DNA of 64,000 nt from an uncultured Dokdonia sp. (lineage in GTDB: Bacteria > Bacteroidota > Bacteroidia > Flavobacteriales > Flavobacteriaceae), in the NCBI RefSeq assembly GCF_937910895.1, contig NZ_CALEMI010000161.1, positions 1-64,000 on the forward strand. Direction: 5' to 3'. Under the pieces are notes generated by a model, which was given only the letters and a program-made list of their open reading frames with translations, was not told the DNA's origin and made no database searches. Within the stretch, counting starts at the first letter, position 1, and every line of letters starts with the position of its first letter. Below, in pieces: positions 1,845 to 63,400 of the stretch. A program made the position numbers and the translations under genes.

Positions 1845-1864
1845 TACGCTTTCGCGAAAGCGTA
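1845..1864. repeat. dispersed palindrome, 20-bp perfect copy
   Basis: TACGCTTTCGCGAAAGCGTA lies between two divergent genes, 22 bases upstream of the tdh start. Its place between divergent starts argues against a simple terminator role. Confidence 0.9.
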
Positions 1865-1893
1865 TACAAAAGCAAACATAATCATAAATTTTT

Positions 1894-1922
1894 CTTGTAT
1901 ATTCCTATTTAGGCTACTTTTG
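1894..1922 (+). promoter_or_regulatory. candidate Bacteroidota-type promoter
   Basis: TACTTTTG at 1915-1922 matches the -7 consensus TAnnTTTG of the Bacteroidota primary sigma factor. CTTG at 1894-1897 is a partial -33 box 17 bases upstream. The lipoprotein start follows at 1945. Confidence 0.45.
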
Positions 1923-1944
1923 TCTATCAATTTTTTAAATCCTT

Positions 1945-5275: not shown

Positions 5276-5300
5276 AACAAAACATAAGTAAGCTAAAGTG

Positions 5301-5340
5301 TACGCTTTCGCGAACCTGCCTACCGTTAGGTAGGAGCATA
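5301..5340. repeat. composite palindrome with inserted GC-rich palindrome
   Basis: TACGCTTTCGCGAA (5301-5314) is the left arm and centre of the dispersed palindrome. A 20-base inverted repeat, CCTGCCTACCGTTAGGTAGG (5315-5334), follows, and then AGCATA resumes the right arm. Confidence 0.8.
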
Positions 5341-6215: not shown

Positions 6216-6225
6216 TCCTTTTTCT

Positions 6226-6296: not shown

Positions 6297-6338
6297 CAAG
6301 CTCCTGTCTGCCGTCAGGCAGGTTCGCGAAAGCGAGTA
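6297..6338. repeat. composite palindrome with inserted GC-rich palindrome
   Basis: Read on the minus strand this is CTCGCTTTCGCGAA, then the insert CCTGCCTGACGGCAGACAGG (plus-strand 6303-6322), then AGCTTG. The insertion point is the same as at 5314/5315. Confidence 0.8.
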
Positions 6339-8776: not shown

Positions 8777-8790
8777 GCTTTCGCGAAAGC
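8777..8790. repeat. dispersed palindrome, 14-bp core copy
   Basis: GCTTTCGCGAAAGC lies between the divergent M28 peptidase and CBS genes, 50 bases from the peptidase start. Confidence 0.85.
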
Positions 8791-11497: not shown

Positions 11498-12637
11498 ATG
11501 CAACACCAGAAACACCTCTTTTCGCTTCCTGAAGATAGTACCTATATCAACGGTGCTTATATGTCCCCACAATTAAAAAGTGTTGCCGAAATAGGAGTAG
11601 AAAGTGTTTTAAAAAAGAACAATCCGACCACTATTTCTCAGTCAGATTTCTTTACCAATCGTACCCTAGTCAAGCAGCGTTTTGCTACCCTTATTGATGC
11701 AGCAGATGAGCAGAACTGTGCGATTATTCCTTCGGTGTCGTATGGGATTGCGACGGTGGCAAAAAATATAGATCTACAACAAGGAGATGAAATTCTCTTG
11801 ATAGATGAGCAATTTCCTAGTAATGTGTACGCTTGGCGCGAAAAAGCAAACGCAACGGGTGCCATCATAAAGGTAGTAGCACCTCCAAATACGTTTGAAA
11901 ACCGAGGGAAGTTATGGAATCAATCCATTCTTGAAGCGATTAATCTGAATACAAAAGTAGTCGCCATGGGTCATATTCATTGGGCAGACGGCACTTTATT
12001 TGATCTGGTAGAAATACGTAAAAAAGCACACGAAGTCGGCGCTAAATTAATCATTGACGGTACCCAAAGTGTGGGTGCGCTTCCTTTTTCTGTGAAGGAG
12101 ATTCAGCCTGACGCTTTGATCGTAGGTGGTTACAAATGGTTATTGGGTCCGTATGCTATTGGCATGGCATATTATGCCGATTCGTTTAATGACGGACAAC
12201 CGCTCGAATACAATTGGATCAATAGAAAAAACAGCGAAGATTTTAGTCAGCTAATTAACTATCAAGACGAGTACAAGCCTAAAGCCGATCGGTTTTCTGT
12301 AGGAGAATCGAGTAATTTTATACTTCTCCCTATGCAAATTAGAGCCATTGAACAATTATTGGAATGGGGCGTTCAAAACATTCAAACGTATTGTGATTCA
12401 ATTTCTGCAAAAGCCGTCCAACAATTACGAGACAAAGGCTGTTTTATAGAGCACGCCAACTATCGGTCAAAACATCTCTTTGGTGTGTACCTCCCTGATC
12501 ATATCACAATGGATGCTGTTAAAGACCGCTTTCGCGAAAGCGGTATATCTGTGGGGATCCGTGGGAAAGCCATTAGAGTCGCTCCACACGTGTATAATAC
12601 CGTAGAAGATTTTGAAAAATTTGTCGCTTGTTTTTAA
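11498..12637 (+). CDS. class V aminotransferase-fold PLP enzyme
   Basis: A 379-residue PLP-dependent enzyme. D187-G-T-Q-S in KLIIDGTQSVG binds the pyridine nitrogen, and K213 in GGYKWLLGPYA is the likely Schiff-base lysine. The fold is that of cysteine desulfurases, isopenicillin N epimerases and kynureninases. No loop cysteine typical of a desulfurase is evident, so the reaction is left open. Bases 12525-12544 carry the dispersed palindrome, read in frame as RFRES near the C-terminus. Its stop overlaps the stop of the convergent next gene. Confidence 0.85.
   Translation: MQHQKHLFSLPEDSTYINGAYMSPQLKSVAEIGVESVLKKNNPTTISQSDFFTNRTLVKQRFATLIDAADEQNCAIIPSVSYGIATVAKNIDLQQGDEILLIDEQFPSNVYAWREKANATGAIIKVVAPPNTFENRGKLWNQSILEAINLNTKVVAMGHIHWADGTLFDLVEIRKKAHEVGAKLIIDGTQSVGALPFSVKEIQPDALIVGGYKWLLGPYAIGMAYYADSFNDGQPLEYNWINRKNSEDFSQLINYQDEYKPKADRFSVGESSNFILLPMQIRAIEQLLEWGVQNIQTYCDSISAKAVQQLRDKGCFIEHANYRSKHLFGVYLPDHITMDAVKDRFRESGISVGIRGKAIRVAPHVYNTVEDFEKFVACF
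12525..12544. repeat. dispersed palindrome inside a CDS (RFRES frame)
   Basis: ACCGCTTTCGCGAAAGCGGT is a perfect 20-base palindrome read as DRFRESG in the class V aminotransferase-fold gene. Confidence 0.9.
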
Positions 12638-15621: not shown

Positions 15622-15657
15622 TACGATCCTGCCGGCAGGCAGGTTCGCGAAAGTGAA
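15622..15657. repeat. composite palindrome with a shorter GC-rich insert
   Basis: On the minus strand this reads TTCACTTTCGCGAA, then CCTGCCTGCCGGCAGG (16 bases, plus-strand 15628-15643), then ATCGTA. The insert sits at the same point as in the other composites but is 4 bases shorter. Confidence 0.75.
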
Positions 15658-16824: not shown

Positions 16825-16846
16825 TTCCGCTTTCGCGAAAGCGGAA
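16825..16846. repeat. dispersed palindrome, 22-bp perfect copy
   Basis: The core TTTCGCGAAA is flanked by TTCCGC and GCGGAA. It lies just upstream of the mfd -7 box. Confidence 0.9.
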
Positions 16847-16880: not shown

Positions 16881-19800
16881 TTGAGTACGACTACACTCTC
16901 GCAACACCTTGCACAATCTCAGCAACTCCTGAAATTGCAGGATGCTATTGCCCAAAATCATCAAAACATACACGCCAAAGGTCTGATAGGCTCTTCCTTA
17001 TCTTATATCATTAGTGCTGTGTATGAACACATTGAACGCCCCATTCTTCTCATTCTCAATGATAAAGAAGAAGCAGCCTATTACTTAAATGATTTGGAGC
17101 AATTACGTAAAGAAGCCAACGTCTTATTCTATCCAGGCAGTTATAGAAGACCGTATCAAATTGAAGAAACCGATAATGCCAATATCCTATTAAGAGCAGA
17201 GGTTTTAAATCGGATCAATAGTAAGAAGAAGTCGGCGTTGATTGTGACGTACCCAGATGCGCTATTTGAACAAGTAGTGACGCGTAGAGAATTAGACCGG
17301 CAGACCTTGAAAGTAAGCGTAGGCGATAAGTTGTCTATAGATTTTATCAACGAGATGCTTTTTGAGTACCATTTTAAACGCGTCGATTTTGTCTCAGAGC
17401 CTGGCGAATTTTCAGTGCGTGGAGGGATTGTAGATGTGTTTTCTTTTAGTCACGACGAGCCGTACCGAATTGAGTTTTTTGGCGATGAAGTGGATAGCAT
17501 CCGTACGTTTGATGTGGAGACACAACTTTCTTCAGATCAAGTAAAGAAAATGGCAGTGATGCCTAATGTAGAAAACAAGGCATTAGAAGAAAAACGAGAT
17601 ACGTTTCTTAAATACATTGCAAATAATACGCTCGTCTTTATCAAAAACCGATCGCTATTTTATGATCAGATTGATAAAAATTTCGCGAAAGCGGAAGAAG
17701 CCTTTACCAAACTTACTTCTGAAGTAAAACGCAGTACACCTAGTGAATTATTTTGCGAAGGATCGCTTTTACAATCACAACTTGAAAGTTTCCAAACTGT
17801 AGATATCAGCACTACGGTACCTGATGTTTCTGTACATACTTTAGTCGCATTTAATCAGCAACCACAGCCGTCATTTAATAAACAGTTTGATTTGCTGATT
17901 CAGAATCTAAACGATAATCACGAGGCGGGCTATAAAAATTACATTTCATGTGTAAGCGAGCAACAAGCCAAACGTTTTAAGGATATTTTTGCCGATGCGC
18001 AAAGTAATGTGACTCAATATGAAACCGTGATTATTTCTTTATATCAAGGATTTATAGATGACGATCTGAAAATCGCACTTTATACCGATCATCAGATTTT
18101 TGAACGCTACCATAAGTTTAATCTCAAAAATGGGTACGCTAAGAAGCAAGCCATTACTCTTAAGGAACTCACCAATCTTAAAGTGGGTGATTATGTCACG
18201 CATATTGATCATGGGATTGGGAAATTTGGCGGTCTTCAAAAAATAGACGTAGAAGGCAAAAAGCAAGAAGCGATTAAGTTGATGTATGGAGAGCGAGACA
18301 TCCTGTACCTGAGTATTCACTCCCTTCATAAAATCACCAAGTTTACTGGTAAAGACGGGAAGGCTCCTCAGATTTATAAATTAGGAAGTCAGGCGTGGAA
18401 AAAACTAAAAGCCAAAACAAAATCTCGTGTCAAGCATATTGCGTTTAATCTGATTAAATTATATGCAAAACGCAGATTACAAAAAGGATATGCTTTTGGT
18501 CCTGATACACACATGCAACATGAACTCGAAGCGAGTTTTATTTACGAAGATACGCCCGATCAAAGTAGCGCGACAGAAGATGTAAAGAGAGATATGGAAA
18601 GTGATCGCCCTATGGACAGGCTCGTTTGTGGTGATGTAGGATTTGGAAAAACAGAAGTCGCCATACGTGCGGCTTTTAAAGCGGTAGATAATGGAAAACA
18701 GGTAGCTGTACTGGTTCCTACAACCATTCTTGCATTTCAGCATGCGAAGACTTTTAGAGAACGACTTAAAGATTTTCCTGTTCGTATCGAATATCTGAAT
18801 CGTTTCCGATCGGCAAAACAAAAACGAGATGTTCTAGAAGGACTTACGAGTGGTGCTGTAGATATTGTGATAGGCACCCACCAACTCACGAGTAAAAACG
18901 TGGTCTTTAAAGACCTAGGACTACTCGTTATTGATGAAGAACAAAAATTTGGGGTTGCCGTAAAAGACAAACTCAAAACCATTAGTGAAAACGTAGACAC
19001 ACTCACGCTAACCGCAACGCCTATTCCAAGAACGTTACAGTTTAGTCTCATGGCAGCGCGTGATTTAAGTACCATTACCACCGCACCGCCTAACCGATAT
19101 CCGATAGAAAGTAGTGTGATTCGTTTTTCTGAAGAAACCATAAGAGATGCCATTAGTTATGAGATTCAACGCGGCGGACAGGTATTTTTTATTCATAATC
19201 GGATTCAGAATATCAAAGAAGTCGCGGGGTTGATACAACGTCTCGTGCCTGATGCCAAAGTGGCCATAGGACATGGTCAGATGGAAGGGAAGAAACTTGA
19301 AGGACTGATGCTTTCTTTTATGGACGGAGAGTTTGATGTGCTCGTCTCTACCACGATTGTAGAAAGTGGACTTGATGTACCCAATGCAAACACGATTTTT
19401 ATCAATAATGCCAATAATTTTGGACTGTCTGACCTCCACCAAATGCGAGGGCGTGTCGGGCGAAGTAATAAAAAAGCATTCTGTTATTTTATCACGCCGC
19501 CTTATAGCGTGATGACAGAAGATGCGCGCAAACGAATCTCGGCACTCGAACAGTTTTCTGTGCTTGGAAGTGGATTTAACATTGCGATGAAGGATCTTGA
19601 GATTCGCGGAGCGGGAGATTTGTTAGGCGGTGAACAAAGCGGCTTTATTAACGAAATAGGGTTTGACACCTACCAAAAAATCTTAAACGAAGCCATCGAA
19701 GAACTCAAAGAAAACGAGTTTGCTGACTTATATGAGGAAGAGAACGCTTTCGCGAAAGCAAATAAAGACTATGTAAAAGATACGGTCATTGATACTGATT

Positions 19801-21545: not shown

Positions 21546-21561
21546 CGCTTTCGCGAAAGCG
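21546..21561. repeat. dispersed palindrome between convergent genes
   Basis: CGCTTTCGCGAAAGCG sits 9 bases after the DUF2490 stop and 8 before the TonB receptor stop. It has no T-run, so it is a weak terminator at best. Confidence 0.85.
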
Positions 21562-23936: not shown

Positions 23937-23977
23937 TATGCTTTCGCGAAGCTGCTTGCGGCAGGCAGGCGCGTATA
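23937..23977. repeat. composite palindrome with inserted GC-rich palindrome
   Basis: TATGCTTTCGCGAA (23937-23950), then the insert GCTGCTTGCGGCAGGCAGGC (23951-23970), then GCGTATA. This insert is less symmetrical than the others. Confidence 0.75.
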
Positions 23978-24113
23978 AAATAGATTTTCAGCACTTAATA
24001 GTGAGATTTAAGAATGATTTTAAAAATTTTATGCATTTTTTCACGTTAACATTCATCGTTATAAACTAAATTTATAGTTCTAATATGATTTAATCATCAA
24101 ATATTTTCGCTAA

Positions 24114-28760: not shown

Positions 28761-29707
28761 TCAGCTTTTATTAATTCACCTTTAATCGTGATGGGATCAC
28801 TTTGTGGATTAGAAAATAGGTGTATGGTGGTTTCCGCTTTCGCGAAAGCGTCCACATTCAAACTCACATTTTCGATAATACGAAGATTAGATGTTCCTAC
28901 TTCTGAGATATAGATACGATCATTGGTGTCACCTCCTAAAATACCATTCGAAAAATTAAACGTTGCCGTATCTAGATTGCCATCTTCATTACCAAGTGAA
29001 CTTCCTGCAAATAAGATAACTTCTCCTGTCTCAGGATTAATTTGATAGATGCGATGTTCTCCTATTTGAGTTCCATATAAAAAATCTCCTTTTGAAGTAA
29101 AAAATCCTAATACATTGCTTTGAGCAGCACTTGCAGGTAATTGTGCGATTTCTGTGAGCGTATCATTGTCTTCTAATCTAAAAATTTTACGATCATTATA
29201 ATTAGAAATATACGTTTGATCTCCTATAAAAGCAATTCCAGAAGGGCCATTAAGAGGAGCGCCTTGAATGAGGATTTCAGTTTCATTGGTGTCAGGATCT
29301 AAGCTATTCAGGCTACTCTGATTGTACGAAACCCATAGCAGTTGATCCTCTTGGGCATCGTATTTTATCCCAATTGGATTAGTAAGACCTGTGATTGTAT
29401 CTAATACATCCCCATTAGTGTTGTAAATATGAATGGTGCCACCGCCAGCTTCACAGATATAAATCCGATCATCGTCGATAACTCCGATTCCGTTGGGATT
29501 TGTAAAACCCGTAGCAAAGGTGGTGACATTGCTAGTGGCAAGCGCATAGATAAATACATCATTTTCTTGAAAATTGGAGACATAAATATCTCCGTTTGAA
29601 GTAATACCCATCCCATCACAAAAGGAGCCTTCGGTCACCGTTGTGACCGTTTGTGTATGCATTAGTATAGAGAATAATAGCATATAAAGCGTCGTAATTG
29701 TTTTCAT
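28682..29707 (-). CDS. secreted NHL/SMP-30-type beta-propeller protein with a frameshifted C-terminus
   Basis: A 341-residue protein with a signal peptide (LLFSILMHTQ). Repeated blades such as SNGDIYVSNF, DDRIYICEAGGGTIHIYN, IAFIGDQTYISNYN and NDRIYISEVG fit an NHL/SMP-30-like propeller, about residues 20-280. A typical T9SS tail begins (TIHLFSNPQSDPITIKGEL), then the frame runs into unrelated residues. In another frame the tail continues as IRIYVSSGQLAKTTEG, then, past an internal TAA, KVYLIKI up to about 28627. The sorting signal is thus broken. An in-frame dispersed palindrome (28835-28850) reads AFAKA just before the tail. Confidence 0.8.
   Translation of the reverse strand: MKTITTLYMLLFSILMHTQTVTTVTEGSFCDGMGITSNGDIYVSNFQENDVFIYALATSNVTTFATGFTNPNGIGVIDDDRIYICEAGGGTIHIYNTNGDVLDTITGLTNPIGIKYDAQEDQLLWVSYNQSSLNSLDPDTNETEILIQGAPLNGPSGIAFIGDQTYISNYNDRKIFRLEDNDTLTEIAQLPASAAQSNVLGFFTSKGDFLYGTQIGEHRIYQINPETGEVILFAGSSLGNEDGNLDTATFNFSNGILGGDTNDRIYISEVGTSNLRIIENVSLNVDAFAKAETTIHLFSNPQSDPITIKGELIKAETIHTYICIFWTIGKNDRRYYPSRFF
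28835..28850. repeat. dispersed palindrome inside the propeller gene
   Basis: CGCTTTCGCGAAAGCG is read AFAKA on the minus strand, at the junction between the propeller and its sorting tail. Confidence 0.85.
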
Positions 29708-34278: not shown

Positions 34279-35415
34279 TTAAAGTGGTTTTAGAGCTACT
34301 GTATAGAAGTATCCCCATTTTTGTTTTTCATTAAAGTTTACAAATCCATAACCACGCACATTTCTAGAATTATTGCTAGGGTATTCTTTAAGCCAAAACG
34401 TATGTGTAGAGTTTGCTAAACGTTTACGCCCGTCGGGACCATTTGCATAACTTGAAAGTGGCTTATCGCCTGTAAGAAATCGAGTAATTTCTTGTAAATC
34501 AACAGTGTCTGCTTGATAGGTGTCTAAGGCATTATTCACCCTTCGATATTCATTATATTGAAATTGTAGACTAAGATCTTCTGCTTCTACAAGTTTATTC
34601 TTATAAATGAGTACAGGGAATTCAATTTCTGTATTTGCATAGTCTTTAGATTGTCCTTCACTCAATACAATATTTTGTGTACTGTGTAATAAATAAGTAT
34701 CTATCTTATTGATAGGACTGTCAAAGATTTTAGCAAAAATGTTTACTTTGCCTTTTTCTGCACCTCCTACACCATTAGATTTATATAGTTTTAAGGTTTG
34801 TAGTTTGACCACAATCTTAGCGTACCTAGATTTTTTAGAGCCATTCCAACTACCCCAATCTCTTTCTTCAAATTTTCCTGTAAAGGAATATCCATTGAAT
34901 TTCATTTGAAACGGTTTGAAGTTTCCGTTACCTTCATTAGAATAGGTGCCTCTTAAAATTTTTGTGGTAGGATTGTATTTCCCATAAATAAATCCATTTG
35001 CACCATAAGTTCCTGCCATCATGTTATGCTTATTTTGTATAAATTGTATATTTCCATAAGTGGTTTCCCATATACCTTCATACTTTTCAAAAGAAGTAGT
35101 TCTTACGGCTTCTCCAGACCAATTCTCAATTAACGGATCTCCTTTCCAAGCCCACTTACCCGTAATTTTACTTCCGTTTTTTGTCCACTTAAAATCTCCT
35201 AATTTATTGTTATTAAAAAAAATCCCTTCCACTGTATTCCCAGTAATAGTATGAACTAATACATGTCCCTTATCTGCATAGGTTCCTACAATTAAATTTC
35301 CTTTTTGAACAAGCTTAACCTCTCCAAAGTTTGTGTTATAAGTACCTCCCCATTCTGTCGCATTTGCTGTCGCGAAAAGGAATAAAAAAGTGAGTATTTT
35401 GAATAGTGCCTTCAT
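34279..35415 (-). CDS. hypothetical secreted protein with two internal repeats
   Basis: A 378-residue protein with a signal peptide (FLFLFATANA). Its first half has two similar units: GTYNTNFGEVKLVQKGNLI with GTYADKGHV (about residues 24-100), and GIWETTYGNIQFIQ with GTYGANGFIYG (about residues 112-195). Both look like the GxW/GxY-rich beta-barrel repeats of lipocalin-type or agglutinin-type proteins. The second half is different and may bind a ligand. The gene is divergent from DUF1800. Confidence 0.75.
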   Translation of the reverse strand: MKALFKILTFLFLFATANATEWGGTYNTNFGEVKLVQKGNLIVGTYADKGHVLVHTITGNTVEGIFFNNNKLGDFKWTKNGSKITGKWAWKGDPLIENWSGEAVRTTSFEKYEGIWETTYGNIQFIQNKHNMMAGTYGANGFIYGKYNPTTKILRGTYSNEGNGNFKPFQMKFNGYSFTGKFEERDWGSWNGSKKSRYAKIVVKLQTLKLYKSNGVGGAEKGKVNIFAKIFDSPINKIDTYLLHSTQNIVLSEGQSKDYANTEIEFPVLIYKNKLVEAEDLSLQFQYNEYRRVNNALDTYQADTVDLQEITRFLTGDKPLSSYANGPDGRKRLANSTHTFWLKEYPSNNSRNVRGYGFVNFNEKQKWGYFYTVALKPL

Positions 35416-38925: not shown

Positions 38926-38941
38926 CGCTTTCACGAAAGTG
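38926..38941. repeat. dispersed palindrome, degenerate intergenic copy
   Basis: CGCTTTCACGAAAGTG differs from the full palindrome by two changes, one in the centre and one in the right arm. Confidence 0.6.
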
Positions 38942-39043: not shown

Positions 39044-41143
39044 ATGTCTCAAAGATATACCATTACCGCTGCTTTACCGTATACCAACGGTCCCATACAT
39101 ATAGGTCATCTCGCAGGCGTGTACGTTCCTGCCGATATTTATGCACGCTATCTCCGTATGCAAGGTGCCGATGTTGCTTTTGTGTGTGGAAGTGATGAGC
39201 ATGGTGTTCCTATTACCATCAAAGCAAAAAAAGAAGGCATTACTCCTCAAGATGTCGTTGATAAGTACCATGCGATTATCAAGCAATCCTTTCTTGATTT
39301 TGGGATTACGTTTGATAATTACTCGCGTACCACGGCGAAGATTCATCATGAGACTGCATCCGACTTTTTTAAGACGATGTATGATCAAGGAAAATTCCTA
39401 GAAGAAACGAATGCGCAATTATACGACGTCGAAGCAGAACAATTTTTAGCCGATCGGTTTGTGACAGGTACCTGTCCTAAATGTGGCTTTGAAGAAGCGT
39501 ATGGCGATCAGTGTGAAAACTGTGGAACTTCCCATAATGCCACCGATTTGATCAATCCTAAAAGTGCGATTTCTGGAGCGGTACCTTCGCTTAAAGAAAC
39601 CAAACATTGGTTTTTACCCTTAGATCAATATGACGAATTCTTTAGAGAATGGATTTTAAAAGGCCATAAAAAAGATTGGAAAACCAATGTCTACGGACAA
39701 TGCAAATCATGGATCGATGATGGTTTACGCCCTCGTGCCGTAACCCGTGATCTCGATTGGGGAATCCCTGTGCCAGTCGAAGGTGCCGAAGGAAAAGTAC
39801 TCTACGTTTGGTTTGATGCCCCTATCGGTTATATCTCTGCCACCAAAGAATGGGCGGCCCGTGAAGGAAAAGACTGGGAACCATATTGGAAAGATAAAAA
39901 CACCAAACTCATTCACTTTATTGGGAAGGATAATATTGTGTTTCACTGCATTATTTTCCCTGCGATGCTTAAAGGACATGGCGATTATATCTTACCTGAT
40001 AATGTACCTGCCAATGAGTTTTTAAATCTAGAAGGGCGTAAACTGTCTACTTCCAAAAATTGGGCGGTTTGGCTACACGAGTACCTTGAAGATTTTCCTG
40101 AGAAACAGGATGTATTGCGTTATGTACTCACAGCAAATGCACCTGAAGGAAAAGACAATGATTTTACGTGGAAGGACTTTCAACAACGTAATAATAACGA
40201 ACTTGTAGCTACTTTTGGAAACTTCATTAACCGTGTAGCGGTGTTGACACAAAAATATTATGACGGTGTCGTGCCTACGCCGGATACTTTTAATGAAGTA
40301 GATTTACAAACCTTGGAAGAAATACGTGCCTATCCAGCTGTGATAGGAAGTAGTTTGGAAAAATACCGCTTTCGCGAAAGCCAAAACAGCCTCATCAACC
40401 TAGCGCGATTAGGAAACAAATACCTCGCCGATGAAGAGCCTTGGAAAACCATCAAAACCGACGAAGAGCGTACCAAAACCGTGATGTATGTCGCCCTTCA
40501 AATCGCTACCGCATTAGCTGTGCTCAGCGAACCGTTTTTGCCTTTTACTTCTAAAAAGTTAAAAGTGATTCTGAACACCCAATCACTTCCAGCCTTGAGT
40601 TGGAACGATATATATGGCTTCTCCCCCTACCAGGGGGAGATGTCTGCCGATGAGGCAGACAGAGGGGGTCTGTTGCCTGCAGGACACACCTGCGGAACAT
40701 CTGAACTCCTCTTCTCAAAAATAGAAGATGCTGATATCCAAAAACAATTAGAAAAATTGGAAGCTAGTAAAAAAGCAAACGAAGCTGAGAATGCCGTTGC
40801 CGAGCCTCAAAAAGAGACCATAGGTTTTGAAGATTTTTCAAAAATCGATATGCGTGTGGGCACCATTATAGAAGCTGAAAAAATGCCGAAAACCAAAAAG
40901 CTTTTAAAACTTACAGTAGATACAGGTATTGACGTACGTACCATTGTTTCTGGAATCGCAGAAAGCTTCACTGCCGAAGAGGTTATTGGAAAAAAAGTAA
41001 CGGTATTGGTCAACTTAGCGCCACGTGCGTTACGCGGTGTCGAAAGCCAAGGCATGATCCTTATGACTGAAGATGCCAATGGGAAATTGGTGTTTTTAAA
41101 TCCTGATACAGATGGAGTGAAGAATGGGGAGACGATTAGTTAA
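39044..41143 (+). CDS. metG: methionyl-tRNA synthetase with an in-frame repeat insertion
   Basis: A 699-residue enzyme that charges tRNA-Met. HIGH signature PIHIGHLAG near residue 16, zinc knuckle [23 protein letters not shown]-like KLSTSK, an anticodon-binding helical domain ([11 protein letters not shown]), and a C-terminal tRNA-binding domain from about residue 600 ([11 protein letters not shown]). Residues about 526-542 ([17 protein letters not shown]) are encoded by a double hairpin and look like an insertion between the catalytic and C-terminal parts. The dispersed palindrome at 40368-40381 reads RFRES in a region where the helix naturally has RFRE. A strong hairpin follows the stop. 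Confidence 0.97.
40368..40381. repeat. dispersed palindrome inside metG (RFRES frame)
   Basis: GCTTTCGCGAAAGC is read YRFRESQ in the anticodon-binding helical domain. Confidence 0.85.
40619..40672. repeat. double-hairpin repeat element inserted in frame in metG
   Basis: TCTCCCCC/GGGGGAGA and TGTCTGCC/GGCAGACA are two adjacent inverted repeats with 5-base loops. Together with AGAGGGGG they form a block of about 54 bases, a multiple of three. It encodes [16 protein letters not shown]. Confidence 0.8.
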
Positions 41144-43271: not shown

Positions 43272-45395
43272 TTGCTACAGTACATCCAGAAACACACCCA
43301 ACTTCCAGAATCCGGTATCAAAAACACCCTAAAACTCCTCGCCGAAGATTGTACCTTACCTTTTATTGCTCGCTACCGGAAAGAAGCTACGGGGAATCTG
43401 GATGAAGTGGAGATTGGTCAGATTATCACGTTTAAAGAGCAATTTGAAACACTGGAAAAGCGTAAAGCAACCATCTTAAAAGCGCTGGAAGAACAAAATG
43501 TATTAACAGACGAATTACGATCTAAAGTAAACACGGCACAAGATCTAACTACCCTAGAAGACCTCTACCTTCCTTATAAGAAGAAACGCAAGACCAAAGC
43601 AGAGACCGCTCGTAAAAACGGATTAGAACCCTTGGCTAAAATGATCATGAGCCAGAATGCAAATGATCTCGACGGACTTGCACAGCGCTATACGAACAGT
43701 GAAGTCCCTTCTGCTGAAGACGCTCTAGAAGGTGCCCGCCATATTATTTCTGAGTGGATTAATGAACGTGCCGATATACGTACAGGAATTCGCCAACAAT
43801 TAGAGTGTTTTGCACTCATAGAAACCAAAGTCATCAAGACCAAAGAAACGGATGAGAAAGCGCAAAAATTTAGAGATTACTTCAATTGGTCTGAGTCTTT
43901 AAACCGATGTCCTTCACATCGCTTACTCGCTATTTTGCGTGCTGAAAATGAAGGCTATATTCGTGTAAAAATAACAATTGATGACGATCGTGCGCTAGAA
44001 AAAATAGAACGCAAACTCATCCGATCTCATAACGAATGTGCCACACACATCGAACTCGCCATCAAAGATGCGTATAAGCGCTTATTGCTTCCTTCTTTAT
44101 CCAATGAAGCGCTCTCGGAAGCCAAAAAGAAAGCTGATGAAACCGCGATTCAAGTATTTGCTAAAAACCTCAAACAACTCCTACTCGGTTCGCCATTGGG
44201 AGAAAAACGCATTCTCGCCATTGACCCAGGCTTTAGAACGGGTTGTAAAGTGGTTTGTCTAGACGCACAGGGCGGTTTGTTACACAATGAGACCATCTAT
44301 CCACATGCACCCAAAAACGACGACAAAGGAGCGATTAAGAAACTGAGTTCGCTGACAGACGCCTATAAAATAGAAGCGATTGCCATCGGAAATGGAACTG
44401 CGTCTCGTGAGACCGAACGCCTTGTCAAACGCATTCATTTTAAAAATGAGATGCAAGTGTTTGTGGTAAGCGAAGCGGGTGCTTCGATTTACTCGGCTTC
44501 CAAAATTGCGAGAGATGAGTTTCCTAATTACGACGTGACGGTACGTGGTGCGGTTTCGATTGGAAGACGCCTCGCTGATCCGCTGGCGGAATTGGTGAAG
44601 ATAGATGCTAAATCCATTGGTGTGGGTCAATATCAGCACGATGTAGACCAAACGGCACTTAAAAATAGCTTGGATCGCGTGGTCGAAATGTGTGTGAATA
44701 GCGTTGGGGTCAATGTCAATACCGCAAGTGCACCACTGCTAAGTTATGTGTCAGGGATTGGACCTAAATTGGCAGAAGGAGTGGTACGCTTTCGCGAAAG
44801 CGAGGGACCCTTTACCTCCAGAGTTGCCATCAAAAAAGTACCACGTCTCGGTGGAAAAGCCTTTGAGCAAGCAGCAGGTTTCCTCAGAATTAAAGATGCT
44901 AAAAATCCGCTGGATGACTCCTCAGTACATCCAGAACGCTACAAACTTGTAGAAAAAATAGCTAAAGATCAGAAGATTTCTGTTGCTGAAATGATTGGAA
45001 ATAATAAACGTTTACAGGCCATTGATCTCCAAAAATATGTTACTGAAGATGTGGGATTGCCTACACTGACTGATATTATCACAGAACTAGAAAAACCAGG
45101 GCTTGACATCAGAGAAAAAGCCAAAGTGTTTACGTTTAACCAAAATATTAGAACGATTGAAGATTTACAACCTGGACAATTACTTCCTGGCATTGTGAAT
45201 AATGTGACTAATTTTGGATGCTTTGTCGATATTGGAATCAAAGAAAGTGGACTGATTCATATTTCAAACCTCGCCGATGGTTTTGTGTCGGATGTTTCGG
45301 CGCATGTAAGTCTGCAACAACAAATTATTGTCAAAGTATTGGAGGTTGACATTTCGCGAAAGCGGATTCAATTAAAATTACATACATCATCCTAA
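43272..45395 (+). CDS. tex: Tex family S1 RNA-binding protein
   Basis: A 707-residue protein, starting at TTG; the nearest upstream ATG is out of frame. N-terminal Tex domain (LPFIARYRKEATGNLDE), YqgF-like RNase H fold (ILAIDPGFRTGCKVV, about residue 315), helix-hairpin-helix (SYVSGIGPKLAEGVV, SRVAIKKVPRLGGKAFEQAAG), and a C-terminal S1 domain (LLPGIVNNVTNFGCFVDIG, ESGLIHISNLAD). Tex is a nucleic-acid-binding protein related to eukaryotic Spt6. Two copies of the dispersed palindrome are in frame: RFRES in the HhH region and SRKR at the very C-terminus. Confidence 0.96.
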   Translation: MLQYIQKHTQLPESGIKNTLKLLAEDCTLPFIARYRKEATGNLDEVEIGQIITFKEQFETLEKRKATILKALEEQNVLTDELRSKVNTAQDLTTLEDLYLPYKKKRKTKAETARKNGLEPLAKMIMSQNANDLDGLAQRYTNSEVPSAEDALEGARHIISEWINERADIRTGIRQQLECFALIETKVIKTKETDEKAQKFRDYFNWSESLNRCPSHRLLAILRAENEGYIRVKITIDDDRALEKIERKLIRSHNECATHIELAIKDAYKRLLLPSLSNEALSEAKKKADETAIQVFAKNLKQLLLGSPLGEKRILAIDPGFRTGCKVVCLDAQGGLLHNETIYPHAPKNDDKGAIKKLSSLTDAYKIEAIAIGNGTASRETERLVKRIHFKNEMQVFVVSEAGASIYSASKIARDEFPNYDVTVRGAVSIGRRLADPLAELVKIDAKSIGVGQYQHDVDQTALKNSLDRVVEMCVNSVGVNVNTASAPLLSYVSGIGPKLAEGVVRFRESEGPFTSRVAIKKVPRLGGKAFEQAAGFLRIKDAKNPLDDSSVHPERYKLVEKIAKDQKISVAEMIGNNKRLQAIDLQKYVTEDVGLPTLTDIITELEKPGLDIREKAKVFTFNQNIRTIEDLQPGQLLPGIVNNVTNFGCFVDIGIKESGLIHISNLADGFVSDVSAHVSLQQQIIVKVLEVDISRKRIQLKLHTSS
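44787..44802. repeat. dispersed palindrome inside tex (RFRES frame)
   Basis: CGCTTTCGCGAAAGCG is read VRFRESEG, where related proteins have a YRxxNG-type helix end of the same length. Confidence 0.85.
45352..45365. repeat. dispersed palindrome at the 3' end of tex (third frame)
   Basis: TTTCGCGAAAGCGG is read ISRKRI in the last strand of the S1 domain. This is the only copy in the window using this frame. Confidence 0.8.
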
Positions 45396-49675: not shown

Positions 49676-50824
49676 GTGCAAACTCACTATGATTATATCA
49701 TTATTGGTGGTGGTCTTTCTGGGCTGACTTTAGCTTATCGGATGGCTCAAGATGCATTTTTTGATACCACTTCTATTCTTATTATAGATCAGTCTGCAAA
49801 AAAAGAAAACGACCGTACCTGGTGTTTTTGGGAATCTCAACCTGATATTTTTGAAGAGATTGTTTCTCATCGCTGGTCCACCATACGTTTTAAAAGTCCT
49901 GTATTTTCAGATGATATTGCGATAAAACCCTATCAGTATAAAAAAATTGAAGGAGATGATTTTTACGCTTTCGCGAAAGCGTACGTAGCCACAAAACCAC
50001 ATATTTCCTTTTTACAGGAAACCGTCCTGTCTGTTGAAAATCAGTCAGACCAAGTGGTGATCATTACAGATAAAAAAAGGCTTTCGGGCGGGAAAGTATT
50101 TAATAGTATTCTGAATTCAGAAGTGCTTTCTAACCAGACACAGCATCAATATCTTAAACAGCATTTTATTGGGTGGTTTATCAAAACAAAGACTCCTACT
50201 TTTGATCCTGATGCAGCCACCTTTATGGATTTTACCGTGCCACAAAAGGGAAATTGTAGATTTATGTATGTGCTCCCCACCTCAACAACGCAAGCCTTAT
50301 TTGAGTACACGTTGTTTTCTAAAGACCTTCTCGAAGACACCGAATATGAAACCGCTATTGAAACATACTTAAAAGAAAAAGGGATATTGCAATATCACAT
50401 TGAACGTAAAGAGCGAGGGAATATTCCTATGTCTTCGTATCGTTTTGATACGCAAGCTTCTAAAAATATTCTACACATCGGGAGCGCCGGTGGGTGGACC
50501 AAAGCAAGTACAGGATTTACCTTTAAACACACGTTAAAAAAGACAGCCGCGCTTGTTGAATTTTTAAAAACAGAAAAAGATTTACGTTTGTTCTCTAAGC
50601 GGACACGTTTCTGGTGGTATGATTTACTGCTTGTAGATGTGTTGTATCGTAAAAATCATTTAGGAGGGCCTATTTTTGCAGAGATGTTTAAAAACAATTC
50701 AACCGATCGGATTTTTAGGTTTCTGGATGATGAAACGACATTTAAAGAAGAATTACAGATTATCTGGAGCTTACCTAAAAAGGAGTTTGTGAAGGCAGTG
50801 TTTAGTCGGTTGTTCCGATTATGA
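49676..50824 (+). CDS. crtY: lycopene beta-cyclase, CrtY type
   Basis: A 382-residue flavoprotein starting at GTG. The FAD-binding loop IIIGGGLSGLTLAYRMA opens the protein. NDRTWCFWE near residue 45, FMDFTVPQKG, FLYVLP-like FMYVLPTST, and GNIPMSSYRF with HIGSAGGWTKASTGF are hallmarks of CrtY-type cyclases, which close both ends of lycopene to beta-carotene at the membrane. Other carotenoid genes are not in the window. The dispersed palindrome at 49964-49983 reads YAFAKAY. Confidence 0.93.
   Translation: MQTHYDYIIIGGGLSGLTLAYRMAQDAFFDTTSILIIDQSAKKENDRTWCFWESQPDIFEEIVSHRWSTIRFKSPVFSDDIAIKPYQYKKIEGDDFYAFAKAYVATKPHISFLQETVLSVENQSDQVVIITDKKRLSGGKVFNSILNSEVLSNQTQHQYLKQHFIGWFIKTKTPTFDPDAATFMDFTVPQKGNCRFMYVLPTSTTQALFEYTLFSKDLLEDTEYETAIETYLKEKGILQYHIERKERGNIPMSSYRFDTQASKNILHIGSAGGWTKASTGFTFKHTLKKTAALVEFLKTEKDLRLFSKRTRFWWYDLLLVDVLYRKNHLGGPIFAEMFKNNSTDRIFRFLDDETTFKEELQIIWSLPKKEFVKAVFSRLFRL
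49964..49983. repeat. dispersed palindrome inside crtY
   Basis: TACGCTTTCGCGAAAGCGTA, a perfect 20-base copy, is read YAFAKAY after GDDF, where other cyclases have a helix of the same length. Confidence 0.9.
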
Positions 50825-52014: not shown

Positions 52015-52028
52015 TTTCGCGAAAGCGG
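52015..52028. repeat. dispersed palindrome, half-extended intergenic copy
   Basis: TTTCGCGAAAGCGG upstream of the DUF6933-like gene; the left arm is lost (AAAAA instead of CCGC). Confidence 0.75.
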
Positions 52029-55729: not shown

Positions 55730-55795
55730 GTTTCCTTTTACAAAAGGTTTCTATATTTTTATGCTTTCGCAAAAAAAATACGCTTAGTAGCAAAC

Positions 55796-56478: not shown

Positions 56479-56502
56479 TTTACGCTTTCGCGAAAGCGTA
56501 AA
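56479..56502. repeat. dispersed palindrome, longest perfect copy (24 bp)
   Basis: TTTACGC and GCGTAAA extend the core on both sides. It lies between convergent stops at 56449 and 56506 and could form a terminator hairpin, but has only weak T-runs. Confidence 0.9.
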
Positions 56503-59500: not shown

Positions 59501-60450
59501 AAACTTCCATCTGCTTTGGTAAGATATTCTGTCAGATCTCCCTTTTTTATGATAGACACTTCTTGTAAAGGCTTCCCAAGACTTGTGATAGTGCCTTGTA
59601 CCGTAGCTTCTTGATTCCTTTTTGTTTTTTCAACCGTGGCTGTTCCTTGAGAAGGAATTTCATTAGAAATACCTTTATAAGTTTGTAATGGTGTGTAGGC
59701 TCCTTGTGTATACTGAGCAAGTGATTGCATATACTCTTTGTTAACTGCTACATCTTCACTTGCAATAGCATATACCGGAATCTCTTGAGAAACATCAAAC
59801 GTTCCATAATTAGGATTTCCGTTAGAACTTAGGATCACAGCATCTGCGCCTGTGAGATCTAAAACATCATAATTAGACGGACCATTGTAAATAAGTCCTT
59901 TTACGCTTTCGCGAAAGCGTGACATATCTCCATCCCGTATCGCTATACGTTCTTCACTACGAATCTGATAGTCAAAAATAACGAGGCGCACCATAAGACC
60001 TTTATACATAGAGACGTAATCTTGTACATACGCAATAGCTGCTTCTACATCTCTACCTTGCATATCTTCTGAAACATCCCAGAAAACAGTCAAATTTTTT
60101 ACATCCTTGCTTTCTTGGTTTTTGGAAGAAGGCTCTAGCTCAATTTTACTAGACCGATTAAAAAGCGTACGTACTTTTTTGGCATCTAATCGTACCGTTT
60201 CATAGCCAGTCGCTCCTACCACAAGTTCGCTTTCCGAATTTAAAATCTCGTTGTATTTTCTGTAATTAAAAAAGCCTTTGGCATTGGTGATTTCACCTAC
60301 GCCTTGATTGTTGATTCCTACGCGTGCTTGTGCAATAGGTTGCTTGGTCACAGCGTCTATTACCGTTCCTCTAAACACGGTTTGTGCTTGGGTTGTTAGA
60401 CTTAGTAACAAAGTGAAAAGTATCGTATATATGGTGTACTGTTTCTTCAT
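56506..60450 (-). CDS. large secreted protein with three carboxypeptidase-like/TonB-plug modules, VWA-like and TPR domains
   Basis: A 1314-residue protein with a signal peptide (to TTQAQ). Order: carboxypeptidase-regulatory-like domain (25-95), VWA-like domain (about 118-265, LTVFWDVSEDMQG), then three modules of about 246 residues starting near 281, 527 and 773. Each module has a carboxypeptidase-like beta domain (TSLGKPLQEVSIIKKG type) and a plug-like part that ends SRYG followed by ALVKGNEY, or a variant. Then come TPRs (about 1070-1190) and a C-terminal beta domain (PFEFQFVNPEKKFFKW). There is no barrel. It lies 7 bases after the next paralogue, in one operon. Confidence 0.85.
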   Translation of the reverse strand: MKKQYTIYTILFTLLLSLTTQAQTVFRGTVIDAVTKQPIAQARVGINNQGVGEITNAKGFFNYRKYNEILNSESELVVGATGYETVRLDAKKVRTLFNRSSKIELEPSSKNQESKDVKNLTVFWDVSEDMQGRDVEAAIAYVQDYVSMYKGLMVRLVIFDYQIRSEERIAIRDGDMSRFRESVKGLIYNGPSNYDVLDLTGADAVILSSNGNPNYGTFDVSQEIPVYAIASEDVAVNKEYMQSLAQYTQGAYTPLQTYKGISNEIPSQGTATVEKTKRNQEATVQGTITSLGKPLQEVSIIKKGDLTEYLTKADGSFELPATEGDILQLRYLGMFPKDVLVSNEKSIDIELLPENNVLDEVVIEKKIERIIVGDKEIRGRRLSPDIPGGVTGALDRYITADDITPNAKTLEYVIRDNFKRVRISYTSQGVQLFIKDVSPAFYINGRKVFNIDEALAIVDTDIESIVIKDSPTTTSRYGPIIPGLAVIVTTKSVDLSKKKRVNSALVKGNEYTEEVESISDGIVSNTRQISGNITSLGKPIQGATVTKQGTFEEATSKADGSFVFAAKEGDELVVYYLGMYPKGFIVDDKTAYTIDLIPKNDVLDEVVLKGETKEEEKIQTAWGKENKDKIGYDIKVLRREDISLGAPDLVTVLNGKFAGIKAFENPLEGLVVINGRAESQPDRGNMLIVIDGQAYEPNIIKPFISPDRVESISIIKGLAGSVRYGTLGKNGVVEITTSNSATGRAQDIPSPLVEGNDYEEEVKSLSEPALNSSSKISITGSVKDANGALADATITRKGSFDEVYTDAQGRFEIRASLGDVVVVSKVGMFAKEVLIESQEMGTITLIPKNDQLDEVVLSGDKRVDNTIESSDGRRVNKDQLGYAVNELTENDFSAGATNLQQLITGKVSGVSVEGGLYSGSQVVYKIRGGNQSITNQIPPIWIVNGTPYQDPPNFLDVQQIASISVLKSSMATSRYGSLAAGGAFLIKTKEVSFQDKAKKAEKSALVSGNEYTESSTRTLDTSSLPEYILRLRAIPNLQEQFELYQRMSRTQESPLEFYVDVANYFDGINKKMADKVRADLAYISRNNTKALRTLCYIYEAAGDYEKAALVYERILKVAPSEAQSYRDLALVYQEIGKYNEALELYYNMLGEQIKGVNFKGLEKSLKSELSHLLALHKDQVDYERFPNEWLRTDFDIDIRMVIDWSDRTVPFEFQFVNPEKKFFKWTHTLQESRERLEEEQAQGYQSEAFIIDDAPPGEWLINIQYLGDEGDYVLPPFLKYTVYKNYGTPQETKEIKVVKLFKQSDKVTLGKVVL
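59903..59920. repeat. dispersed palindrome inside the 1314-residue protein gene
   Basis: ACGCTTTCGCGAAAGCGT is read SRFRESV on the minus strand in the VWA-like domain. The paralogue has a same-length stretch without the motif. Confidence 0.85.
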
Positions 60451-60457
60451 AGTATAG

Positions 60458-63400
60458 CTATCTGAGTGTTAATGTCCCTATGGTTGTTTTGTCTTTTTGC
60501 TGGAAAAGCTTAATGAGTTTTACCTCTTTGGTTTCTTGAGGTGTAGCATAGTTAAGGTATAAGGTGTATTTGAGATATGACGGGGGTTGTATCTTACCAT
60601 CTCCTAGATATCGTACATTGATAATCCATTCTCCGGGAGGAGCATCATCAAGTGCAAACTCTTCGATGCTATAGCCTTTTGAGACTTCCTCTTTTAAACG
60701 TTCTTGATTTACAAAAACAGAGTGCTCCCAGGTAAAATATTTTCCAGTTGGGTTTACAAATTGAATCTCAAAATCTGCTTGAGCATTGGTCCATTCAAAA
60801 ACAAGACGGCGATCTTTTTTAAATCCTACAGTTAGTAATTCATTAGAAACATCTTTAAAACTTACTTTTGATTTATGGAAGGTTAGGAGTCGCATCATCT
60901 CATATTCTGCCGTTTTTTTGAGAGGTAAAAAATCAAGCGCTACGGTTTCATTGGCTAGTATTTGTTTATATAACTCAAAGGCTTCTTGATACTTCCCTAC
61001 TTGTTGATGAGAAATGGCAAGATCTCTATACGACTGTATCCGATCTGGAGCGAGCTCTAATATTTTGTTGTATAAAGTATTAGCAAGTTGGTCTTCATTA
61101 AAAGATTCTAGATAGTATGCCATCAACTTTAAGGCTTCTATATTTCCTGATAGTACCTCTGGGAGATTAGAAAGAATCCGTAATGCTATTTTTTTATCCC
61201 ATTTTTGAAAATAGGTAGCAACATCTATATAAAATACAGCAGGGTCTTCTAGGCGTGTACTTTTATAGTTTTCATATATCTTTCTAGCTTCTTCAAGGGT
61301 AATTGCACTTTCTAATTGAATCAAATAGGCAGGTTTGTTTAAGGTATTATTTAAAACAACTACGCCTTCTGCTACATAGTCATTTCCTTCTACCAAAGCA
61401 GATGGGATTTCCTCTCTTTTATTTTTTTGTGCGTAATAGTCTGGATTTCCAGATTTTGTCTCCACAAGAATAGCGCCTCCTCTACCTAATGTTCCATATA
61501 ATGCATTGGCATGAAGTGATGTGATTACTTGAACAGAAAGAATATCTTGAGGGTTTATGGGAGGCACAGCGCCGCCTGATTGTTGGTAAACAATTCCGTT
61601 TAAAACAACAATTGGTAACACTTGTTGCGAGATACTAATCGCTCTTGGGTTTACATAAACTTCTTCTCTTGTTAATGGATCTTGCTCTACTCTAATGCTT
61701 GAAAACCTTTTTAAAACGTCTCCGAGTGTCAAAAATGCAGGACTTATATCTTCTTCTCCAATGATATTTGTTTTAAAGCCTACAGCATCTTTATTTTTTT
61801 TCACTAAAGCAGTTGCTATACGTTTTTCTTCTTCTTTCTTTTTTCCTTCTAATACTACTTCGTTTAGCCATTCTCCATCTGTTTCTAACACAATGTTCAT
61901 TTTTTCAGTCCCTTTCACTACTACTTTTTGGGTTTTCATCCCTGGAAATCTAATTTCCAATTGATCTCCTTTTTGTACTTCTATTTCAAAAGTACCCGAA
62001 GCATCTGAAACTACTTCGCTAAAAGTTCCATGAACTGCTATTCTAGCTCCATCAAGAGATCCAATCTCAGAGGTAATATTCCCTATTATTTTAAAACTAT
62101 TTATAGGGGTGCTTCTATGATCTATAGAAAGATCTTTAAGTAGATACTCTAAAGCTTCTTTAGGTGTATGTCTATTCAAATCTATGTATAAACCGTCTGT
62201 ATATAATACGGCTTCTTCAAGAACTTCCTTGTTTGCTTTTTTAGAGGTGCTTACGGTAAATGTGGTGTTATTAAATGTAGGTTGTAAATCAGAAAACAGC
62301 GTATTTCCATCAGTAAAAATAAGAGTATACTGTCGCTTTTCGGAATTTACTTCTGTCAATGCCCTATAATCTGATGTCCCTTCATAGCTTGTATTTTGTA
62401 AAAAATTGATAATGGCTTCAGAGGTTCCTCTTTTTACAGTAAAATCTTTGGTTTCTTTATATCCAAAAGCAAATTTATGAATCGTAACGTCTACATTTTT
62501 TAAAGATGTAATGTATCGTTCTAATAGTTCTAATTCTGTATCTAAATTTCGATCGTTCGCTTTCGCGGAAGCGTCCCAAAAAATAGTGATCGCTTCGGGC
62601 AATGGTCTGTTTATTGTTTCTTTTGTTCCCTTTTTTAAAGGATAGGATACATCCATCGTAAAACCCATTGCTTCTTTCTTATGAACCTCCCAAGAATCCT
62701 GACTAATAGAGCGTGTAAAAGACATGTTTTTATTGCTACTTCCTGCAATGGCAAATCCTAAACGTTTTCCATAAATTTCTATTAACTCGATGCTGACAAT
62801 AACATCGGTATCTGTAAAGATTTTATACTTGGATAACGGGATACGTTCTACTCCATTTCTTCTGGAGATGGTATGGTAAATAGCTGTGTTTAGAATATTA
62901 TGTTGAGGCAATCTAGAAATAGGATCGATATCATATACATTGACACGTACGCGTATGCTATCAGACAAATTTTCTAGTACTGTAAAATGTAAACTTTTAA
63001 GTTGTGTTCCTTCTTTTTTGACTTTAATTTTAGTGGCTATTTCCCCTCCAAGACCTAATTCATTTTTCCAATAGCCAAATTTCTCTGAATCTATCTTTAG
63101 ATTTCCTATGGTTGTATTTTGAAGCTTTGTATTTCCTAATACGACTTCTTCCAAACTATAACGCTCTGGGATAAGGGTAATCGTATTTTTTTTAGAAAGT
63201 AGCGAAGAGATGAATCTTATAGGTATTTGTTTTGTCTTGAAACCAATCATTGAAAATTGAATAACATCAGATCCTTCCATTTTATCTGTAAGATATGTGA
63301 GTTCAAAATATCCTTGTGCATCGGTAACAGATCCTATGCCTTTTCCTATAAAACCTACATTTACAAAAGGAATGGGTGTTTGGGTATTTTGATCAAGAAT

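What the first reader, a model, noticed from the sequence alone, without database searches (positions are those of the whole stretch)
1845..62573. A palindrome, GCTTTCGCGAAAGC, is scattered through the whole window
I count about 25 copies of the core TTTCGCGAAA or close variants, 18 of them with the exact 10-base core. By base composition, fewer than one exact core would be expected in 64 kb (about 0.1, by hand). Roughly half lie in genes and half between genes, including copies between divergent starts (1845, 8777) and between convergent ends (21546, 56479). The copies differ in arm length from 14 to 24 bases, always around the same centre. This is the pattern of a DNA uptake sequence or of the HIP1-type highly iterated palindrome of cyanobacteria. 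I do not know of a described function in Flavobacteriaceae.
Basis: partly seen in the sequence, partly recalled or inferred. Interest (0 to 1): 0.85.

Follow-up and report, generated by a model that had tools for sequence, protein, structure and literature searches.

The report
Evenly spaced genome-wide palindrome in Dokdonia
A 14-20 letter DNA palindrome recurs roughly every 3,000 to 5,000 letters along the chromosomes of the marine bacterium Dokdonia and two other genera, and its DNA letters (not just the proteins they encode) are kept by evolution, which points to an unknown protein that reads it.

Summary
The window (a Dokdonia, by its nearest named relatives) holds 18 exact TTTCGCGAAA, 0.12 expected. 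Its genome holds 1092, reversed control 22; all 18 Dokdonia genomes hold 481-1195. Of 397 family genomes only 6, in 3 genera, exceed 34 copies. The consensus is TACGCTTTCGCGAAAGCGTA with flanks poor in C on the left and in G on the right. In three syntenic 400-kb blocks spacing is even: mean 3 kb, CV 0.53-0.58, 0 of 5000 random placements as even; the window's own genome is not significantly even. Selection acts on the DNA: 208 of 214 codons identical at unchanged residues, 155 expected; 89 of 103 sites kept in three species, random 10-mers 31%. Five of six examined copies fit birth by substitution, one by in-frame insertion. Two methyltransferase families and a pilus platform family are not common to the 14 motif genomes tested; ParB shows no extra copy. 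I read it as binding sites of a dimeric, probably chromosome-organising protein (0.4); a DNA-uptake signal is the main rival (0.3). Nine literature searches showed no description.

The parts
1850..1859 (.). exact core copy, between divergent ORFs
   Evidence: arm 10
5306..5315 (.). one-mismatch copy, half-site next to CCTGCCTACCG, between convergent ORFs
6322..6331 (.). one-mismatch copy, half-site fused to CAGGCAGG
8779..8788 (.). exact core copy, between divergent ORFs
12530..12539 (.). exact core copy inside aminotransferase class-V ORF 11498-12637
15643..15652 (.). one-mismatch copy, half-site fused to CAGGCAGG
16831..16840 (.). exact core copy just upstream of mfd; kept in the one relative that aligns there (L081)
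17681..17690 (.). exact core copy in mfd (NFAKAEE), made by substitution
19748..19757 (.). exact core copy in mfd (AFAKA), an in-frame insertion in a length-variable loop (2-4 codons longer than in non-motif relatives), shared with genus g191
21549..21558 (.). exact core copy between convergent ORFs
23942..23951 (.). one-mismatch copy between divergent ORFs
24105..24114 (.). one-mismatch match (TTTCGCTAAA), probably chance
26306..26315 (.). exact core copy in M16 peptidase ORF (AFAKA), no gap against a solved relative
28838..28847 (.). exact core copy in ORF 28682-29707(-)
31300..31309 (.). exact core copy, intergenic or in a short doubtful ORF
33146..33155 (.). exact core copy in ORF 32672-33571(-), shared with genus g191
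35368..35377 (.). one-mismatch copy in ORF 34279-35415(-)
38929..38938 (.). one-mismatch match (TTTCACGAAA) between ORFs
40370..40379 (.). exact core copy in methionyl-tRNA synthetase (RFRES), kept in 15 of 16 aligned Dokdonia genomes
44790..44799 (.). exact core copy in tex (VRFRESEG), kept in 12 of 13 aligned genomes
45352..45361 (.). exact core copy in tex, present in 3 of 13 aligned relatives, made by substitutions
49969..49978 (.). exact core copy in ORF 49676-50824(+), kept in 1 of 2 aligned relatives
52015..52024 (.). exact core copy between ORFs
55765..55774 (.). one-mismatch match (TTTCGCAAAA) between ORFs
56486..56495 (.). exact core copy between convergent ORFs, longest symmetric arms (12)
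59907..59916 (.). exact core copy in ORF 56506-60450(-)
62561..62570 (.). one-mismatch copy (TTTCGCGGAA) in ORF 60458-63511(-)

Best explanation
The palindrome is the recognition site of a sequence-specific, two-fold-symmetric (dimeric) DNA-binding protein shared by Dokdonia and genera g191 and g11, spread along the whole chromosome (about one per 3 kb in the blocks studied) and kept by selection on the DNA sequence. Shown: genome-wide iteration, a palindromic 20-bp consensus, symmetric compositional flanks, even spacing in several genomes, DNA-level conservation, and examples of birth by point substitution and by small in-frame insertion. Inferred: that a dimeric protein reads it, and that its main job is intracellular and chromosome-scale (compaction, segregation, repair or recombination addressing) rather than regulation of single genes, because copies lie in genes and between genes alike and are evenly spread.
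For: Palindromic 20-bp consensus with flanks poor in C (left) and in G (right) to about 20 bp beyond it. Among one-mismatch 16-mers the deviation is at the outermost base in 24 of 26, 5 of 9, 30 of 36 and 30 of 31 cases in samples of four genomes. Spacing CV 0.53, 0.58, 0.56, with 0 of 5000 random placements as even in each; also even in G190 (CV 0.587, 0 of 2000). Codon identity at unchanged residues 208 of 214 against 154.9 codon-matched expectation. 89 of 103 three-way aligned sites kept in all three species against 31% of random 10-mers. Sites per intergenic kb lowest between divergent genes (0.9-1.0) and higher elsewhere (1.5-2.5). Of 9 viral contigs whose pieces I counted together, 8 carry 3-7 copies, and two of these encode phage structural proteins.
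Against: No binding protein was identified. I know of no chromosome-organising protein with about 1000 such evenly spaced sites (recalled). ParB has no extra paralogue restricted to the motif genomes, and canonical parS is present. The window's own genome is not significantly even (CV 0.80; 188 of 2000 simulations as low), and the first 100 copies of G397 give CV 0.83. In the three-species comparison single-branch 14-mer losses in G399 and G402 exceed gains, 14 to 0, with 4 further sites found only in G400 and 1 missing only there, which may be gains or losses, so the set may be slowly eroding there. Two isolated phages of a Persicivirga host carry no copy.
Confidence: 0.4

Rival explanations
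1. It is a DNA uptake signal: competent cells preferentially import DNA that carries the palindrome, and sites accumulate by selection or molecular drive, as with the uptake sequences of Haemophilus and Neisseria.
For: Even spacing in three Dokdonia blocks and in G190; even spacing was reported for H. influenzae uptake sequences by Karlin et al., as cited in a passage of PMC1939737, which adds that Karlin et al. took it as a sign of a role in replication, repair or compaction. Copies in genes and between genes. ComEC in 28 of 28 genomes, motif and control. Riemerella columbina, described in PMC7965970 as a Flavobacteriaceae species, prefers its own DNA in transformation (section read). Strain-variable stretches carry sites at 0.22-0.33 per kb, near the 0.32-0.34 of aligned DNA. 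Core near-misses are not rare in two genomes (14-mer one-mismatch 15 against 44 exact in G206, 20 against 50 in G190).
Against: Known uptake sequences are not palindromes (PMC1939737 passage). The pilus platform family PF00482 is absent from 9 of 14 motif genomes, including single-contig ones, and among Dokdonia sites are not denser where it is present. In G400 and G000 core near-misses are few (8 against 108 and 6 against 82). Losses exceed gains. No kb-scale drop in divergence around sites, only a weak one within 200 bp (low power).
Confidence: 0.3
2. It is a HIP1-type highly iterated palindrome tied to a DNA methyltransferase that modifies TCGCGA or CGCG, kept by methylation-linked repair.
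For: Same form as HIP1: a GC-centred palindrome repeated in and between genes; deviations concentrated at the outermost base (that HIP1 shows this is recalled). HIP1 goes with two orphan methyltransferases that read its inner sequences (start of the abstract of PMC4390886; passages).
Against: C5 methyltransferase PF00145 is absent from 7 of 14 motif genomes; N6_N4 methyltransferase PF01555 passes its cut-off in only 2 of 14. Other methyltransferase families were not searched. The consensus is longer than usual methyltransferase sites (general knowledge).
Confidence: 0.1
3. It is a dispersed mobile repeat (REP/MITE-like) that spreads by transposition.
For: Site 19748 is an insertion of 2-4 codons relative to 16 of 16 non-motif relatives shown. 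Half-sites fused to CAGGCAGG repeats exist.
Against: Sites 17681 and 45352 arose by substitution in place; sites in MetRS, Tex (44790) and the M16 peptidase align without gap to solved relatives. Even spacing is not expected of transposition. Rfam finds nothing in the window.
Confidence: 0.04
4. It is a transcription terminator or operator.
For: The palindrome could form a short hairpin (not folded here); copies are frequent between convergent genes (1.9-2.5 per kb).
Against: 78-81 of 127-134 copies per block lie inside ORFs. In G400 the right flank is A-rich, the mirror of a T-rich left flank, so no T run follows the hairpin on either strand.
Confidence: 0.03

Closest known systems
HIP1, GCGATCGC, of cyanobacteria
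   Same: Highly iterated palindrome, clade-wide; single-base deviations biased to the ends (for HIP1 recalled)
   Different: 8 bp against a 20-bp consensus; HIP1 goes with orphan methyltransferases, whereas neither of the two methyltransferase families tested is shared here; other phylum
Uptake signal sequences of Haemophilus influenzae and Neisseria
   Same: About 1000-2000 copies per genome, in and between genes, even spacing cited for H. influenzae (passages of PMC1939737)
   Different: Uptake sequences are not palindromic; here no pilus platform family in 9 of 14 motif genomes
Noc/ParB binding sites (NBS, parS)
   Same: 16-bp palindromes with TTTC...GAAA half-sites read by a dimer (NBS and dimer recalled; parS found here)
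   Different: TTTCGCGAAA has a 2-bp centre, not 4; about 1000 sites, not tens (recalled); no motif-specific ParB paralogue
Chi sites
   Same: About 1000 copies in E. coli (1008, table in PMC1939737)
   Different: Chi, GCTGGTGG, is not a palindrome

Membership tests
HIP (highly iterated palindrome) | Palindrome at far above expected genome frequency | tested here: met
   1092 copies against 22 for the reversed control; 481-1195 in 18 of 18 Dokdonia genomes
HIP (highly iterated palindrome) | A methyltransferase specific for the inner sequence present in the motif genomes | tested here: inconclusive
   PF00145 in 7 of 14 and PF01555 over cut-off in 2 of 14 motif genomes, so neither is shared; other methyltransferase families not tested
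HIP (highly iterated palindrome) | Single-base deviations biased to the outer bases (recalled for HIP1) | tested here: met
   24 of 26, 5 of 9, 30 of 36, 30 of 31 at the outermost base of the 16-mer
DNA uptake sequence (DUS/USS) | DNA with the motif is taken up preferentially | not testable with these tools
   needs a transformation assay
DNA uptake sequence (DUS/USS) | Even spacing along the chromosome (cited for H. influenzae) | tested here: met
   0 of 5000 placements as even in each of three blocks, 0 of 2000 in G190; not significant in the window's own genome, 188 of 2000
DNA uptake sequence (DUS/USS) | Non-palindromic motif | tested here: not met
   20-bp palindromic consensus
DNA uptake sequence (DUS/USS) | Type IV pilus-type uptake machine (PilC-like platform) | tested here: not met
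   PF00482 in 5 of 14 motif genomes and 3 of 14 controls; whether flavobacterial uptake needs it is unknown
DNA uptake sequence (DUS/USS) | Inner-membrane channel ComEC | tested here: met
   28 of 28 genomes, motif and control alike
Noc/ParB site system | A ParB-family protein specific to the motif genomes | tested here: not met
   One strong ParB match in each of 28 genomes; weak second matches in one motif and three control genomes
REP/RAYT or MITE repeat | Copies are insertions, mostly intergenic | tested here: not met
   78-81 of 127-134 copies in ORFs; 2 of 3 polarised cases by substitution
Intrinsic terminator | Hairpin followed by a T run | tested here: not met
   Right flank is A-rich by symmetry, from base frequencies of G400 copies

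The most novel reading that the evidence does not exclude
A chromosome-wide molecular ruler: a previously undescribed dimeric DNA-binding protein of a few marine Bacteroidota genera reads about 1000 evenly spaced 20-bp palindromes (with about 20 bp of keto-rich flank on the 5' side of each strand) to organise or protect the whole chromosome, with some phages carrying the same marks. This would be a third kind of genome-wide signal beside Chi and uptake sequences.
Probability: 0.33. Interest if true: 0.9.

Novelty: new variant of a known kind. Interest (0 to 1): 0.74.

Why it matters
Evenly spaced, DNA-level-conserved marks at 3-kb intervals over long stretches of chromosome are rare, and the function of the best known palindromic case, HIP1, is still open (recalled). 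Here the motif is long enough to pull down its reader directly, and several genomes of the genus are single contigs, so the question what such marks are for becomes testable. It may also matter in practice: DNA for engineering these bacteria may need the mark.

Tried and rejected
Uptake machinery as a correlate: PF00482 and ComEC do not track the motif. Methyltransferases PF00145 and PF01555 do not track it. A Noc-like ParB paralogue, suggested by the TTTC...GAAA resemblance, was not found. Recombination centred on sites: third-position divergence within 200 bp is 0.218 against a shifted-site mean of 0.228, 0.223 against 0.245, 0.141 against 0.151 (fraction of 200 shifts as low 0.095, 0.005, 0.09), with no clear trend beyond; inconclusive. 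Loss of redundant sites: lost sites lie nearer a neighbour than kept ones in one pair (p 0.02), not clearly in the other (p 0.12). An mfd tree puts g191 beside Dokdonia and g11 apart on a long branch; the motif needs two changes on it and well-supported branches force two, but it is a quick method, one gene, midpoint-rooted, so one or two origins stay open. blastn of phage and plasmid records with a 40-base query found no record of a related host, but a 16-base match lies near the E-value limit, so this is weak. PDB search for ORF 49676-50824 found nothing; for ORF 11498-12637 the alignment shown stops before the site. Literature: (listings with abstract starts; beyond that only passages of PMC4390886 and PMC1939737, and passages plus sections 14, 16 and 19 of PMC7965970) showed no description of this motif; the ten papers that contain the letters were judged by title and abstract start only.
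Full report
Observation. The window holds 18 exact copies of TTTCGCGAAA and 27 with at most one mismatch (shuffle mean 3.55 for the latter); a first-order expectation for the exact word is 0.12. The wider word CGCTTTCGCG occurs 17 times against 0.02 expected. Copies lie in ORFs (11 of 18) and between them (6, plus 1 ambiguous).

Reach. The window's genome (4.81 Mb, 169 contigs) holds 1092 copies against 22 for the word read backwards, and 878 of the 14-mer GCTTTCGCGAAAGC against 0. The closest named relatives by the mfd gene are Dokdonia records (93%, 83% and 82% identity), so I call the genus Dokdonia. All 18 genomes of the genus searched have 481-1195 copies, control 9-23. Of 397 family genomes in 237 genera, 6 in 3 genera have 559-1107 (g1 is Dokdonia; g11; g191); the next highest has 34. 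In a class-level draw of 395 genomes, which did not include other genomes of these genera, only the window's own has more than 4 copies of the 14-mer. The six enriched genomes carry 153-630 perfect 16-mers. g11 and g191 are unnamed in the data.

Anatomy. The consensus is TACGCTTTCGCGAAAGCGTA. Among one-mismatch relatives of the 16-mer CGCTTTCGCGAAAGCG, the mismatch is at the outermost base in 24 of 26 (G400), 5 of 9 (G206), 30 of 36 (G190) and 30 of 31 (G000). Exact against one-mismatch 14-mers are 108 to 8 and 82 to 6 in the G400 and G000 samples, so the core is strict there, but 44 to 15 and 50 to 20 in G206 and G190, where it is looser. Flanks to about 20 bp beyond the 20-mer are poor in C on the left and in G on the right (GC skew in the first 10 bp 0.72, 0.36 and 0.47 in G206, G190 and G000; 0.46, 0.14 and 0.34 in the next 10; 0.09 or less at 20-30 bp), in coding and intergenic copies of G400 alike. 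They show no clear extra dyad symmetry beyond composition.

Spacing. In three syntenic 400-kb blocks of Dokdonia species (G400, G399, G402) mean spacing is 3.0-3.1 kb with CV 0.53, 0.58 and 0.56; 0 of 5000 random placements are as even in each. Gaps under 1 kb make up 8-10% against 27-29%. In G190, pooled from 20 pieces, CV is 0.587 (0 of 2000). G206 has 0.567 over 200 kb (no simulation). Two results weaken this: in the window's own larger genome CV is 0.80 (188 of 2000 simulations as low), and the first 100 copies of G397 give 0.83 (no simulation; largest gap 16.8 kb). A few control 7-mers (4 of 219, 1 of 223, 1 of 219) and no 6-mers (0 of 981, 961, 954) are as even; I did not check whether those 7-mers are parts of the motif. 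Density differs little between aligned and strain-variable DNA (0.32-0.34 per kb against 0.22-0.33 in variable runs over 2 kb).

Selection on DNA. Between G400 and G399 (89.8% identical) 86 of 98 alignable 12-mer cores are identical. At residues that did not change, core codons are identical in 208 of 214 cases against 154.9 expected from the same codons elsewhere; the other four comparisons agree (191 of 191, 188 of 194, 171 of 171, 200 of 203). Intergenic cores are 99-100% identical while positions 11-20 on either side are 77-89%, below the intergenic background of each pair, 87-93%. Of 103 three-way aligned 10-mers, 89 are kept in all three species, against 31% of random 10-mers. For the 14-mer, 71 of 89 are kept in all three (random 21%); losses on the G399 and G402 branches number 7 and 7 and gains 0 and 0; 4 are found only in G400 and 1 is missing only there, which may be gains or losses.

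Age and birth. The copy in methionyl-tRNA synthetase is present in 15 of 16 aligned Dokdonia genomes, that at 44790 in tex in 12 of 13, that at 45352 in tex in 3 of 13 with point differences only in the rest. Copies 19748 and 33146 are shared with genus g191, 26306 is not. Copy 19748 lies in a loop that is 2-4 codons shorter in g11 and in all 16 non-motif relatives shown; copy 17681 is a substitution. Copies in MetRS, tex (44790) and the M16 peptidase align without gap to solved relatives. So of six copies examined five fit substitution in place and one a small in-frame insertion.

Travel. Genome G160, of a genus without the motif, has its 4 copies of the 14-mer within 16 kb. Efflux genes surround them: two RND pumps, a membrane-fusion protein and two P-type ATPases with metal-binding domains among the six proteins scanned. 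The stretch matches Dokdonia G399 in pieces of 67-87% DNA identity; of the 5 TTTCGCGAAA copies in the 40 kb read, 4 fall in aligned pieces and all 4 are matched there. I infer that motif-bearing DNA moved between genera. In IMG/VR (2.9 million contigs) 41 stretches hold the 16-mer (I made no chance estimate). Of the 9 contigs I grouped, 8 have 3-7 TTTCGCGAAA copies in the 12-28 kb held, and two of them encode phage portal, head, tape-measure or baseplate proteins. Two phage isolates of a Persicivirga host, 35.7 and 34.0 kb read, have none.

Factors. Over 14 motif and 14 control genomes: ComEC in 28 of 28; PilC-like PF00482 in 5 of 14 motif and 3 of 14 control; C5 methyltransferase in 7 of 14 motif and 9 of 14 control; N6_N4 methyltransferase over cut-off in 2 of 14 motif and 5 of 14 control; one strong ParB match in every genome, with canonical parS-like sites found in G400, G399, G402 and G190 stretches. 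None tracks the motif.

Interpretation. Two-fold symmetry over 14-20 bp plus symmetric flanks is what a dimeric DNA-binding protein would leave. Even spacing with copies in and between genes argues against gene-by-gene regulation and for a chromosome-scale role, inside the cell or in DNA exchange. I put the intracellular role first (0.4) because of palindromy, the missing pilus platform in most motif genomes tested and the lack of new gains. Uptake is second (0.3, raised from 0.28 on rechecking because core near-misses are not rare in G206 and G190): even spacing is cited for the H. influenzae signals, though there read by Karlin et al. as a sign of replication, repair or compaction (PMC1939737 passage), and self-preference in transformation exists in Riemerella (PMC7965970). 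The general claim, protein recognition sites under DNA-level selection, I hold at about 0.85.

Noticed in passing
window 5306, 6322, 15643, 23942: Half-copies of the palindrome beside CAGGCAGG-type repeats (e.g. GGCAGGCAGGTTCGCGAAAG); 3 fused copies in 436 kb of the own genome by a strict pattern, 3 in 200 kb of G206, none in the G400 or G190 samples. Perhaps a separate repeat that uses the half-site.
   Followed up: partly
window 6235 and 31707: Another dispersed hairpin, CCCGCGAAGGCGGGAAT-like, between genes.
   Followed up: no
L318-L319 (G160:C1:300001-340000): An efflux gene cluster (RND pumps, P-type ATPases with metal-binding domains) with similar stretches in Dokdonia G399/G402 and, in part, G190, carrying the motif into a genus that otherwise lacks it.
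   Followed up: yes
L271, L288, L291 (IMGVR_UViG_3300040781_000495) and L262, L281 (IMGVR_UViG_3300039191_000376): Phage-like contigs with several copies of the palindrome (7 in 27.9 kb and 4 in 18.5 kb held).
   Followed up: partly
G400/G399/G402 intergenic copies: Sequence 11-20 bp from the centre changes faster than the intergenic average while the core hardly changes; cause unknown.
   Followed up: no
Dokdonia genomes of 4.3-5.5 Mb against 2.6-3.6 Mb: The larger genomes have lower motif density than most of the smaller ones, about 0.15-0.23 against 0.17-0.32 per kb (computed).
   Followed up: no
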